Assembly: GCF_002891535.1 (NCBI RefSeq)
Contig: NZ_PDZR01000006.1
Location: forward strand, 1 to 64,000
Length of the DNA: 64,000 nucleotides
From: Methylocella silvestris
GTDB taxonomy: Bacteria > Pseudomonadota > Alphaproteobacteria > Rhizobiales > Beijerinckiaceae
Direction of reading: 5' to 3'
Part shown: positions 10,736 to 14,274 of the stretch, piece by piece
Layout of the letters: each line of letters begins with the position of its first letter
Numbering within the stretch: the stretch's first letter is position 1
Notes under the pieces: model-generated
The model's database searches: none
The model's input: the letters and a program-made list of their open reading frames with translations, nothing else
Told to the model about the DNA's origin: nothing
Made by a program: the position numbers and the translations under genes

Positions 10736-12661
10736 ATGACTGGCAAAAGCGCTATCGCCGCAAGGCTTGGCGAAAGCGGCCTTCTTCTGCCGTCCCTGAT
10801 CGGCGAGGCGCTACAGGCGAACGACCGTATCAAACTCCGCTTCAGCCTGTTGCAGGAGGCGTTGGCGCAGGCGCGCAATCCGCATGAGCGGCCCGCCACA
10901 TTCGTCGCCGAACGGCAGTCGGCCGGGCTCGGCGACGCCCAATTCGACGCCATTGTCTCAGGCGCAAAAGCCATCGACGCCGACGCCATCCTTGCGCCCG
11001 GCGCCGGCGCCCTTCTCGCGGGGATCAAGCCCGACCTTGCCGCCATGCTGGCGCCGGTCGAGACAACCGATCCGACCGCGGCGGCAGGTTACGCGGCAAG
11101 GCTCGAACGTCTCGGCGCTTGCCTCGCAGGCCCGGACGGCGACGCCGTCAGCGCCGCCAAAATCTCCGCCATGACCTCGGGCCGGCGCGAGGCGGGCGAC
11201 AGCCTGCATCTTCTGGTCATGGATCTGCACAAGGCGATCAACACGATTGCCGCGGCGAGCGCGCCGGAAATCATCGACGGCTGCAGCGCCCATGGCGCGA
11301 GCCCGCAGGACCGCGTGCGGATCGCCGCCTTCATGCGCGGCGTCAATCGCACCCGCGCGCTCGCCTTCGGCCACCCGGGACTGGGCGCGACGGCTGTACG
11401 CACGGGCGCCTCGCTGACGATCCAGAACGATATCGGCACGACCGACGCGCATGTTCTCGTCGTCCACGTCGGGGATCAGAGCGTCGCCGTGACCTACACC
11501 GACGTGCACCGGCCCCGCGCCAAATTCTTCATCGGGATGTTCGCCGGAGAGGGCGTCGAATTCGGTCCCATGAGCGAACATCAGACGCGGGGCATCGGCG
11601 AAGAAGATGTCTTCTATCTGCTGACCGGCCGCTTTTCCGGCCCCGAGCCGGCGCTGCTCTCCTTCCTCGAAGCGCTCGGCGCGCGGCTCGTCTTTCTCAT
11701 TGACTGGAACAAGGCGCGCAAGGCGCTGCAGATCTTTGCCGGCAAGGAGAGCGCGGCTGAACTGCTGGCCTTCGCGGCAGCCAAGGAGTATGGCCATCGC
11801 GCCTTTCTCGAACTCGGCGGCGCGGACCTTGTCTTCGACGCCGTGCGCAAGGTCGCCGCCGGACGTATTCCGTATGGGGCCCGGCTCGACGACGCGCTCG
11901 GCCGCGCGCCAACGCGCGATTTTCTGCGCGAGGTATTGCGGCGGACCAGCCTTGGCCTTGCCGCCGGGCGCTCGGCGCGACTGATCCGCGATGAAATCCA
12001 GGCCGATCTGTCGCAAAGATTTGAAAGCGCCGAAGCGACGCTCCTCGTGCTGATCGTGCGCCATCTCGGGCTCTCCCGCATGCTGGCTGGTTGGCTCGCC
12101 GACTTGACGTCCGGCGGCGCGACGGACCGGCGCCGCTTTGCCGCCCGCTCCGCTCTGCTTGAAAAAAAGGCCGATGCGCTGACGCTCGCAGCGCGCGAAA
12201 TAGCGGGCCGCCTCAGCGGCGCCGACGTCCTGCTCCACCTCGTCAATGCGGTCGAGAACGCCATGGACGCGCTGGACGAATGCGCCTTCCTGATCAGCCT
12301 TCGTCCCGAGGCGGAGGCTTTGGACGTGGCGGAAGTCGAGCTTTCGACCCTCGCCAGCATCGGGCTCGAAAGTTTCAGCCATCTCATTCGCGCCTGCGAG
12401 GCGGCGATGCTTGCGCCAGCCGGCCCGCGCGCTGACGTCACAGACGCGCTGCGTTCGATCGACGCCGTGCTCGACGCCGAACATCGCGCCGACGCCGCCC
12501 TGCGCGAGGCGATGCGCGCGTGCTTCGGCGCGCAGGGTCTTGACGCGCGCGGCCTGACGCTACGGCTCGAAGTCGCGCGTATGATCGAGGCCTCGACCGA
12601 TCACCTCGCTCATGCGGCGCTGGCCCTGCGCGATCATGTCCTGAAGGAGTTGTCCGCATGA
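10736..12661 (+). CDS. Large protein with C-terminal PhoU/DUF47-like domain
   Basis: 641 residues, cytosolic, no membrane segments. The C-terminal part (roughly 465-640) looks like a PhoU/DUF47 helical bundle: long amphipathic helices with LLEKKADALTLAAREIAGRL, then HLVNAVENAMDALDECAFLI, and a repeat of the pattern around LDAEHRADAALREAM. The N-terminal 450 residues are not recognised. They include a possible short helical segment at the start (LLLPSLIGEALQANDRIKLR) and a mixed region near 215-290 (TIQNDIGTTDAHVLVVHVGD). The gene overlaps the next one by ATGA, so the two products are probably made in fixed ratio and may form a complex. PhoU/DUF47 proteins bind metal clusters and regulate phosphate transporters in other systems, but no transporter lies here. 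The function is therefore open. Confidence 0.75.
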   Translation: MTGKSAIAARLGESGLLLPSLIGEALQANDRIKLRFSLLQEALAQARNPHERPATFVAERQSAGLGDAQFDAIVSGAKAIDADAILAPGAGALLAGIKPDLAAMLAPVETTDPTAAAGYAARLERLGACLAGPDGDAVSAAKISAMTSGRREAGDSLHLLVMDLHKAINTIAAASAPEIIDGCSAHGASPQDRVRIAAFMRGVNRTRALAFGHPGLGATAVRTGASLTIQNDIGTTDAHVLVVHVGDQSVAVTYTDVHRPRAKFFIGMFAGEGVEFGPMSEHQTRGIGEEDVFYLLTGRFSGPEPALLSFLEALGARLVFLIDWNKARKALQIFAGKESAAELLAFAAAKEYGHRAFLELGGADLVFDAVRKVAAGRIPYGARLDDALGRAPTRDFLREVLRRTSLGLAAGRSARLIRDEIQADLSQRFESAEATLLVLIVRHLGLSRMLAGWLADLTSGGATDRRRFAARSALLEKKADALTLAAREIAGRLSGADVLLHLVNAVENAMDALDECAFLISLRPEAEALDVAEVELSTLASIGLESFSHLIRACEAAMLAPAGPRADVTDALRSIDAVLDAEHRADAALREAMRACFGAQGLDARGLTLRLEVARMIEASTDHLAHAALALRDHVLKELSA

Positions 12662-14274
12662 TCCAGCAAAGTTTTGAGCCGGTCTTCATCGGCGCCACGG
12701 GGGCCGAGGACGCCCCAAAAAGTTTCGGCGCAAAAGAGCTGGGCTCGAAGGCGGCGATGCTCTGGCGCATGAATGCGCTCGGCTTTGCCGTTCCGCCCGC
12801 CTTCGTCCTGCCGACGGCCCTCTGCCGACCCGCCAATGCCGGCGAGCAGCCTGCGCTTGCCGCCATCGACGAAGGGTTGCGCGCGGGCGTCGCCTTTCTC
12901 GAACAGGCGACGGGACGACGCTTCGGCGACGCCCGCCGGCCCCTGCTCGTCTCGGTGCGCTCCGGCGCCGAACGCTCGATGCCGGGGATGCTTGAGACGG
13001 TGCTCGACGTCGGCCTCAATGAGGTCACGCTGCGCGGCCTGATCCGCCTGACCGGCAATCCGCGGCTCGCCTTCGACTGCCGGCGCCGCTTCATCGAGAG
13101 TTTTAGCGAGGTCGTCGGCGGCGTCGCTCCGTCCGCCCTGGCGCAGCGCCTCGCCGCCCTGATGGGCGAAGAGGACGCTTTGAACGAAGCCGAGCTCGAT
13201 TGCGAGGCGCTGGAGCGGCTCGTCAAGGATTTCGAGGCGATCGCCGCGCGCGAATGCGAGACGCCTCTGCCCGACGATCCTTTCGAGCAATTGGCCGGCG
13301 CAGCCCGCGCCGTCTATCGCTCCTGGGACAGCCCCAAGGCGCGGGAATATCGCCGCCTCAATGCGCTCGAAAGCCTGCAGGGCACGGCCGTGACCGTTCA
13401 GGCCATGGTCTTCGGCAACGCCGGCGGACAATCGGGCGCGGGCGTCGCTTTCTCGCGCAACCCTTCGACCGGAGCGAAAGAGCTTTACGTCGACTTCCTT
13501 CTCGACGCGCAGGGCGAGGACGTCGTCTCGGGTCGTCGCACGCCGGGCGGCGCCGCGCTTCTGATGGCGCGTCTGCCGCAGGCGGCGCAGGAGCTTGACC
13601 TCGCGGCGGCGCGGCTGGAAGCCGAGTTCAAGGACGTTCAGGATATTGAATTCACCGTGGAGGAGGGAAAGCTCTTCTTCCTGCAAACCCGCGCGGCCAA
13701 ACGCGCGCCGCTGGCGGCCGTGCGCATCGCCGCCGATCTGAAGCGCGAGGGCGTCATCGACGCGGCGACCGCGCTGCAGCGCATCGAGGGGATTGATCTT
13801 GCAACCCTCGGCGAGCAGCGCTTTGTCGGGTCCGCCGAAGCGGTCGCGCATGCGACCGCAGCCGCGCGGGGCGTCGCGAGCGGGCGCGCCGCCTTCGACA
13901 GCGAAAGCGCCAAGGAGCTGGCGGCCGCGGGCGATCCCGTCATTCTCGTGCGGCCGGACGTTTCGACCGAGGACATCGCGGGCTTTGCCGCCGCCGCCGG
14001 CATCCTCACCGCGACCGGCGGGCGCACCGCCCACGCCGCGGTTGTGGCGCGGCAGATGGGCAAGGTCTGTCTCGTCGGCTGCGCCGCGCTGCGCATCGCC
14101 CCTTCGTGGCGCGAGGCGCAGCTTGGCGCCCACACCGTCAGGCAGGGCGATTTTCTCTCCCTCGACGGATCGAGCGGCGAGATTTTCCTAGGGCGCCGAG
14201 AGATCGTGATCGAGCGCCCGGAAACCGAACTCGCCGAAATCGCCTCCTGGCGCGAAGCGCGCAAGGCGGGCTGA
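12658..14274 (+). CDS. Truncated PPDK-like phosphotransferase (ATP-grasp plus His domain)
   Basis: 538 residues that follow pyruvate phosphate dikinase closely and then stop. The ATP-grasp part shows FGAKELGSKAAMLWRMNALG, LLVSVRSGAERSMPGMLETV, TAVTVQAMVFGNAGGQSGAG and DIEFTVEEGKLFFLQTRAAK. The swivelling domain carries the phosphohistidine site, His459, in GGRTAHAAVVARQMGK. Canonical PPDK runs to about 880 residues because of a C-terminal PEP/pyruvate TIM barrel, which is wholly absent here. The stop is followed by a short gap and then tyrS, with no trace of a barrel in other frames. It can plausibly autophosphorylate from ATP and pass the phosphate to a partner, perhaps the coupled upstream protein. 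That last step is inference. Confidence 0.85.
   Translation: MIQQSFEPVFIGATGAEDAPKSFGAKELGSKAAMLWRMNALGFAVPPAFVLPTALCRPANAGEQPALAAIDEGLRAGVAFLEQATGRRFGDARRPLLVSVRSGAERSMPGMLETVLDVGLNEVTLRGLIRLTGNPRLAFDCRRRFIESFSEVVGGVAPSALAQRLAALMGEEDALNEAELDCEALERLVKDFEAIAARECETPLPDDPFEQLAGAARAVYRSWDSPKAREYRRLNALESLQGTAVTVQAMVFGNAGGQSGAGVAFSRNPSTGAKELYVDFLLDAQGEDVVSGRRTPGGAALLMARLPQAAQELDLAAARLEAEFKDVQDIEFTVEEGKLFFLQTRAAKRAPLAAVRIAADLKREGVIDAATALQRIEGIDLATLGEQRFVGSAEAVAHATAAARGVASGRAAFDSESAKELAAAGDPVILVRPDVSTEDIAGFAAAAGILTATGGRTAHAAVVARQMGKVCLVGCAALRIAPSWREAQLGAHTVRQGDFLSLDGSSGEIFLGRREIVIERPETELAEIASWREARKAG

What the first reader, a model, noticed from the sequence alone, without database searches (positions are those of the whole stretch)
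10736..14274. Coupled DUF47-like protein and barrel-less PPDK: a possible uncharacterised phosphotransfer module
The PPDK-like protein retains the ATP-grasp and phosphohistidine (His459) parts but lacks the whole C-terminal PEP/pyruvate barrel. It overlaps by ATGA the gene of a large protein whose C-terminal part is PhoU/DUF47-like. A phosphoryl group loaded on His459 has no visible acceptor except possibly the partner. I know no characterised system of this form.
Basis: partly seen in the sequence, partly recalled or inferred. Interest (0 to 1): 0.72.

Follow-up and report, generated by a model that had tools for sequence, protein, structure and literature searches.

The report
Half-PPDK kinase with PhoU-tailed partner
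Two overlapping genes, inherited together in scattered Alphaproteobacteria, encode half of a known phosphate-moving enzyme plus an unstudied partner that probably takes over the phosphate, and a control site of the low-oxygen type lies in front of them in about half of the groups examined.

Summary
A (10736-12661, 641 aa) and B (12658-14274, 538 aa) overlap by ATGA. B is the ATP-grasp plus phosphohistidine half of pyruvate phosphate dikinase (PPDK), without the PEP/pyruvate barrel; the ATP-site residues checked and His459 are invariant in 39 of 39 relatives. A has a C-terminal DUF47/PhoU domain with four E/DxxxD motifs and a ~440-residue His/Asp-rich region matching nothing searched. They form one module: B follows A in 78 of 80 loci (the other two end at the contig edge) and in 11 of 11 genomes of a class sample; 45 A-linked Bs form one fully supported clade. 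No free-standing barrel was found in this genome. New here: a FixK2/FNR-type box upstream of A in 17 of 33 sequence clusters, the window included, and a FixK2-controlled phosphoketolase/acetate kinase neighbourhood in many Bradyrhizobium. A barrel-less PPDK has precedent: mycobacterial VadK (2026) autophosphorylates the equivalent histidine, apparently with another partner. Best reading: a split phosphotransferase, probably low-oxygen induced, in which A supplies the acceptor site B lost. New variant of a known kind.

The parts
10736..12661 (+). Gene A, 641 aa: N-terminal ~440-residue region of unknown fold with 18 residues invariant in alignment A3 (H158, D163, H165, N169, H213, Q230, N231, D232, H239, D256, H258, R261, D323, W324, N325, R328, K329, H354); C-terminal DUF47/PhoU-like domain
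12110..12661 (+). DUF47/PhoU-like domain of A (about residues 459-641) with four E/DxxxD motifs (476/480, 507/511, 582/586, 618/622)
   Evidence: 3l39 match over profile positions 460-638; residue counts
12658..14274 (+). Gene B, 538 aa: barrel-less PPDK (ATP-grasp plus phosphohistidine swivel domain); His459 predicted phosphorylation site
14032..14034 (+). Codon of His459 of B
   Evidence: position 459 of the ORF starting at 12658; aligned to the PPDK histidine
12658..12661 (+). ATGA overlap of A stop and B start
10663..10676 (+). FixK2/FNR-type box ATGATTAACCGCAA, 73 bp upstream of A, one mismatch to TTG[AC]N6[GT]CAA
10628..10650 (+). Possible terminator hairpin of the upstream gene, which would give A-B its own promoter region (the number of such hairpins in the region is not above chance)

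Best explanation
A and B are the two subunits of a split dikinase-type phosphotransferase. B binds ATP in its ATP-grasp domain and, by the PPDK half-reaction, puts the beta-phosphate on His459, releasing AMP and PPi or Pi. The swivel domain, which in PPDK would then dock on the C-terminal PEP/pyruvate barrel, docks instead on A, whose N-terminal ~440-residue His/Asp/Arg/Lys-rich region is the acceptor site: either one of its invariant histidines or a small molecule bound there takes the phosphoryl group. The PhoU-like domain with its E/DxxxD metal motifs senses or gates. In many lineages the unit is switched on by a FixK/FNR-type regulator under low oxygen. Shown here: gene structure, intact ATP and His sites, absence of the barrel, strict co-inheritance, the conserved upstream box. 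Inferred: loading of His459, docking on A, the acceptor, metal binding, low-oxygen induction.
For: B keeps K31, R101, D329, E331, Q343, R345 and H459 in 39 of 39; they align with PPDK (Lys22 of PPDK is named as contacting ATP phosphate in PMC4844700, the others are recalled). A homologous barrel-less protein, VadK, autophosphorylates its histidine with ATP and Mg (PMC13400623). A precedes B in 78 of 80 loci, 14 of 14 places in the family sample, 11 of 11 genomes of the class sample, and 4 of 4 whole-length matches of the phylum sample; A-linked Bs are one clade, 100/100. In 71 loci examined for neighbours, the other genes that recur in more than ten loci belong to the Bradyrhizobium group. A's N-terminal region has 18 residues invariant in 27 of 27, many of catalytic type. 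Some other barrel-less PPDKs also have non-barrel companions, and phenylphosphate synthase is a precedent for a dikinase spread over subunits (PMC7500099 passages). FixK-type box; FixK2-dependent xfp/ackA directly upstream in Bradyrhizobium.
Against: No direct evidence of phosphotransfer to A. A's N-terminal region has no detectable homology to any family searched or to the partner proteins of other barrel-less PPDKs (the partner profiles held only four sequences each), so 'acceptor site' rests on conservation alone. Some barrel-less PPDKs (L154-L156) show no evident partner, so a partner is not always needed. No fold could be predicted. 16 of 33 clusters lack the box at the usual place, and the window's box has one mismatch. 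In phenylphosphate synthase the histidine is on the alpha subunit while, as recalled, the ATP domain is on another, unlike here.
Confidence: 0.5

Rival explanations
1. Regulatory phosphorelay: B is a VadK-like histidine autokinase that reports ATP (or Pi) level, and A is its regulated effector or regulator (a PhoU-type switch), with no small-molecule product.
For: VadK, the only characterised barrel-less PPDK found, autophosphorylates and is proposed to act by binding methylcitrate-cycle enzymes (PMC13400623); A ends in a PhoU-like domain, a fold known for signalling (recalled).
Against: The N-terminal region of A is large, strongly conserved and rich in invariant His/Asp/Arg/Lys, more like an active site than a docking surface; no target gene was seen beside the pair outside the Bradyrhizobium group (gene calling imperfect).
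Confidence: 0.27
2. Energy salvage in the reverse direction: A moves phosphoryl groups from a donor such as acetyl phosphate onto His459, and B makes ATP from AMP and PPi under low oxygen.
For: PPDK runs in reverse to form ATP in bacteria and protozoa (PMC5371819, start of abstract); in 17 of 29 Bradyrhizobium-titled loci A-B follows phosphoketolase, with acetate kinase between in 13, enzymes of acetyl phosphate.
Confidence: 0.1
3. B is a decaying PPDK remnant and A an unrelated neighbour.
For: The genome has a full-length PPDK, so B is not needed for that reaction; some other lineages also show truncated PPDKs.
Against: Catalytic residues invariant, length 523-554 aa in the complete copies, one old clade always seen linked to A.
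Confidence: 0.03

Closest known systems
VadK (Rv1127c of Mycobacterium tuberculosis), PMC13400623 (abstract, passages, sections 16-18 seen)
   Same: PPDK half with ATP-grasp and phosphohistidine domain, barrel absent, no free barrel gene, operon with a partner (Rv1126c); autophosphorylates its histidine.
   Different: Probably another partner: a Streptomyces barrel-less PPDK of VadK-like layout has a 210-aa upstream gene without detectable relation to A, and its PPDK half falls outside the A-linked clade on a long branch. VadK and Rv1126c sequences themselves were not compared.
Pyruvate phosphate dikinase (PPDK, TIGR01828)
   Same: Residues 28-515 of B align with its first half, ATP-site residues and histidine kept.
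   Different: No PEP/pyruvate barrel; 522 bits against a family cut-off of 843; the genome has a separate true PPDK.
Phenylphosphate / phenylphosphoamidate synthase (PMC7500099, passages)
   Same: Dikinase function spread over separate subunits.
   Different: There the phosphohistidine is on the alpha subunit (His569) and, as recalled, the ATP domain on another; here both are on B.
Rifampin phosphotransferase (PMC4844700, passages)
   Same: ATP-grasp plus swivel histidine domain with a non-barrel acceptor domain.
   Different: One chain, other domain order, known antibiotic substrate.
DUF47/PhoU (TIGR00153, PF01865, PDB 3l39)
   Same: C-terminal ~180 residues of A, four E/DxxxD motifs.
   Different: A carries a ~440-residue N-terminal region; no phosphate transporter was recognised among the nine window neighbours scanned.

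Membership tests
PPDK (EC 2.7.9.1) | ATP-grasp domain with ATP-site residues | tested here: met
PPDK (EC 2.7.9.1) | phosphohistidine swivel domain with catalytic His | tested here: met
   PF00391 8.3e-20; H459 39 of 39
PPDK (EC 2.7.9.1) | C-terminal PEP/pyruvate barrel, in cis or in trans | tested here: not met
   absent from B; only two PEP-utilizers_C matches in the genome, in full PPDK (C9) and an 808-aa open frame (C20)
VadK-type kinase | barrel-less PPDK with intact His and ATP site | tested here: met
VadK-type kinase | same clade as actinobacterial VadK-like proteins | tested here: inconclusive
   A-linked Bs are a separate 100/100 clade; Streptomyces L151 lies outside, on a long branch; VadK itself not included
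VadK-type kinase | operon partner of the ~200-aa actinobacterial type | tested here: inconclusive
   profile A4 (four sequences) against A3: probability 0.2%. That A4 stands for Rv1126c is inferred from place and a recalled size
VadK-type kinase | ATP-dependent autophosphorylation | not testable with these tools
   needs purified protein
PhoU/DUF47 | E/DxxxD metal motifs | tested here: met
   four motifs in 27 of 27, position 507 being E in 16 and D in 11
PhoU/DUF47 | PhoU fold | not testable with these tools
   structure prediction switched off; sequence match to 3l39 at 1.7e-8
PhoU/DUF47 | genetic link to a phosphate transporter | tested here: inconclusive
   none recognised among nine window neighbours (the one ABC-type ATPase lies beside a SufB gene); other loci not tested for it
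FixK/FNR regulon | box TTG[AC]N6[GT]CAA at a fixed place upstream | tested here: met
   window: one mismatch at -73; 17 of 33 clusters against 3-6 in control windows and 1.6 (maximum 6) in shuffles
FixK/FNR regulon | oxygen-dependent expression | not testable with these tools
   FixK2 dependence is published for bll2518/bll2517; bll2515/bll2516 were not found in print

The most novel reading that the evidence does not exclude
A new two-subunit dikinase: B charges His459 from ATP and the N-terminal region of A, a new enzyme fold or family fused to a PhoU metal sensor, transfers the phosphoryl group to an unknown metabolite, as part of the low-oxygen (and in some lineages perhaps phosphate-starvation) programme of Alphaproteobacteria.
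Probability: 0.4. Interest if true: 0.78.

Novelty: new variant of a known kind. Interest (0 to 1): 0.57.

Why it matters
It would show that the charging half of PPDK is a portable phosphoryl-donor module that different bacteria join to different acceptor proteins. It gives the VadK story a harmless, genetically tractable counterpart with a defined partner, names the likely acceptor, and hands a testable low-oxygen phenotype to a family annotated, on the plasmid records seen, only as 'DUF47 family protein', 'phosphate transport regulator' or 'hypothetical protein'.

Tried and rejected
Split barrel elsewhere in the genome: searched, not found. A as a distant relative of the partner proteins of other barrel-less PPDKs, or of PPDK itself: profile comparisons gave probabilities of 0.1-0.2% (two of the profiles held four sequences). 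Known family for A's N-terminal region: Pfam, NCBIfam, PHROGs and PDB sequences gave only scattered weak matches. NCBIfam NF004531 as a marker of barrel-less PPDK: rejected because the genome's full PPDK scores higher (494 bits) than B (455). First gene-calling by longest ORF gave wrong-frame genes in GC-rich DNA; replaced by GC3-weighted calling, which still missed B in some loci, so the neighbour counts are lower bounds. FNR palindrome TTGAY-N4-RTCAA: none in the window. Pho box: a reverse-oriented Pho-box-like repeat abuts the FixK box in relatives (score at least 11 of 14 in 32 of 104 upstream regions against 0.5 expected in shuffles; L010 of the same genus 12 of 14), but the window has only 9 of 14 and a scan of the window with up to 3 mismatches found none at this place. 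The consensus is recalled; a paper I tried for it is not held. The 104 regions are not independent. Kept as a lead only.

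Full report
What is there. Two genes on the + strand overlap by ATGA: A 10736-12661 (641 aa) and B 12658-14274 (538 aa). The gene before them (9839-10624, 261 aa, no Pfam hit) and anhydro-N-acetylmuramic acid kinase (8761-9873) lie upstream; a class I W/Y-type tRNA synthetase, tyrosyl by its C-terminal match, lies downstream (14306-15601).

B is the first half of PPDK. It has PPDK_N and the phosphohistidine domain and no barrel. TIGR01828 matches positions 16-525 of 865 (522 bits against a cut-off of 843). It aligns to PPDK 1kbl over residues 28-515, and His459 falls on the histidine of the GGMTSH motif. In 39 aligned relatives K31, R101, D329, E331, Q343, R345, T457 and H459 never vary; that these are the ATP ligands of PPDK is recalled except for Lys22, which PMC4844700 names (passage). 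The genome has a true PPDK on contig 9 and a third, odd PPDK-like protein on contig 21. The PEP barrel family occurs only in the true PPDK and in one 808-aa open frame, so there is no free barrel for B.

A is a new combination. The window protein alone hits no family, but its relatives do: DUF47 in 16 of 44 (best 2.7e-7), TIGR00153 in 6 of 27, PhoU-like 3l39 at 1.7e-8 over positions 460-638. Four E/DxxxD motifs are kept in 27 of 27 (position 507 is E in 16 and D in 11). Residues 1 to about 440 match nothing that I could search yet hold H158, D163, H165, N169, H213, Q230, N231, D232, H239, D256, H258, R261, D323, W324, N325, R328, K329 and H354, each in 27 of 27 (H354 is 43 of 44 in alignment A1).

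The two go together. Of 80 genome loci fetched by A (the best 80 of 172), 78 have B directly downstream on the same strand; by the start codons I assumed, 77 overlap or lie within 100 bp and one lies 180 bp away. In the two without (L073, L080) the contig ends inside or 126 bp after A. Bs with a stop codon in the contig are 523-554 aa. In a family sample 13 of 99 genomes have A, and all 14 places have B beside it. In a class sample 11 of 289 genomes have A and 11 of 11 have B next to it. In a phylum sample 5 of 348 genomes match A: four over the whole length, all with B beside it, one only in the PhoU part. The samples overlap (G000 is in each, G132 in two). A-B pairs are also on plasmids of Methylocella tundrae and of the betaproteobacterium Aquabacterium olei, so the unit may move; one locus comes from a MAG labelled Terriglobia (L099).

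B without A. All 235 B-matching genomes of the class sample are covered (checked); only up to five candidates per genome were scored, so extra copies may be missed in genomes seen there alone. Four of the 235 have only weak matches. By open-frame length I counted barrel-less PPDKs without A in seven: G139, G322, G137, G242, G163, G260, G120. Partial matches in G285, G357 and G361, whose ends I did not examine, were left out. A tree of 75 rows (rows chosen by me) puts all 45 A-linked Bs in one clade (100/100, branch 0.68); the six of the seven that were included lie elsewhere (G242 was not included). So barrel-less PPDKs exist in several lines, and this line is tied to A.

Other barrel-less PPDKs have other companions, or none evident. 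On a Streptomyces plasmid, and in the alphaproteobacterial loci L157 and L159 (there in one frame with the ~500-aa protein), a barrel-less PPDK goes with a ~200-aa protein; on a Rhodococcus plasmid a related 206-aa protein precedes an 835-aa PPDK-like protein (alignment A4). L157, with much of it shared by L158 and L159, also has a stand-alone phosphohistidine-domain protein, a ~500-aa protein without Pfam match and biotin carboxylase parts (for L157), and an acyl-CoA synthetase-like protein (by eye). Neither companion family resembles A (small profiles). L154-L156 show no such partner.

Known system. PMC13400623 (abstract, passages and sections 16-18 seen) describes VadK, Rv1127c of M. tuberculosis: barrel-less, autophosphorylated with ATP and Mg but not as the His422Ala mutant, with operon partner Rv1126c that improved its solubility, and proposed to regulate the methylcitrate cycle. 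This makes loading of His459 in B likely and weakens the claim that nothing of the form is characterised. It does not tell what A does.

Control region. Upstream of A lies a FixK2/FNR-type box (consensus TTGA/C-N6-T/GCAA, PMC9104804 passage). With at most one mismatch it is found 45-100 bp upstream in 52 of 79 distinct upstream regions without phosphoketolase, against a shuffle mean of 3.8 (maximum 10), and in 18 of 18 with it. After clustering A at 65% identity it is in 17 of 33 clusters, against 3-6 in equal control windows farther upstream and 1.6 (maximum 6) in shuffles. The window has ATGATTAACCGCAA at -73 (10663-10676); many sites begin with A, as does one listed FixK2 target (ATGATCTGGGTCAA). 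Sixteen clusters lack it. The genome has eight Crp-family HTH matches over the cut-off; which of them, if any, is a FixK was not examined.

Bradyrhizobium link. In 17 of 29 loci titled Bradyrhizobium, phosphoketolase lies upstream on the same strand, with acetate kinase between in 13 (in L062 with a gap of over 2 kb); some of the 29 have little upstream sequence. Phosphoketolase and acetate kinase were named by eye from the sequences and fit the published pair. In the B. diazoefficiens locus L078, TTGACCTCACGCAA lies 89 bp before the start of the phosphoketolase match, the same site and distance as published for bll2518, whose operon bll2518-bll2517 is FixK2-dependent. bll2518 is listed among the proteins and genes that differ under microoxia (PMC6515984 passage). 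That A and B are bll2516 and bll2515 is my inference; neither name was found in print. The window's genome has no phosphoketolase match, so that enzyme is not needed for A-B.

Mechanism. Most likely B loads His459 from ATP and A takes the phosphoryl group, at its conserved N-terminal region, with the PhoU-like domain as gate, when oxygen is low. Steps shown: genes, residues, lost barrel, co-inheritance, upstream box. Steps inferred: loading, docking, acceptor, metal, induction. The main rival is a regulatory relay like VadK.

Verdict. Real, conserved and worth testing; a new variant of a known kind because the charging half and its chemistry are known and a barrel-less relative has been characterised.

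Noticed in passing
L002 / L162 (own genome, contig 21): A third PPDK-like protein (open frame 835 aa) matching the PPDK model only up to position 549 of 865; a Rhodococcus plasmid has an 835-aa PPDK-like protein also without a barrel match (L150).
   Followed up: partly
L157 1900-11441, with parts in L158 and L159: Clusters with barrel-less PPDK, a stand-alone phosphohistidine protein, a ~200-aa protein, a ~500-aa protein without Pfam match, biotin carboxylase parts and an acyl-CoA synthetase-like protein: possibly a new ATP-dependent activation and carboxylation pathway.
   Followed up: partly
L155 6520-8187, L156 5947-7635: In two small alphaproteobacterial genomes the PPDK-like gene beside a glycyl-tRNA synthetase-like gene (by eye) is barrel-less (about 560 aa), apparently an independent truncation.
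   Followed up: partly
upstream of A in relatives, e.g. L010: A reverse-oriented Pho-box-like repeat abuts the FixK box; weak in the window (9 of 14).
   Followed up: partly
window 39171-39184: A second match to the A-type box pattern (CTGATCCGGCGCAA).
   Followed up: no
window 9839-10624: 261-aa protein without Pfam match with an HECTH stretch, like a metal-site motif (by eye).
   Followed up: no
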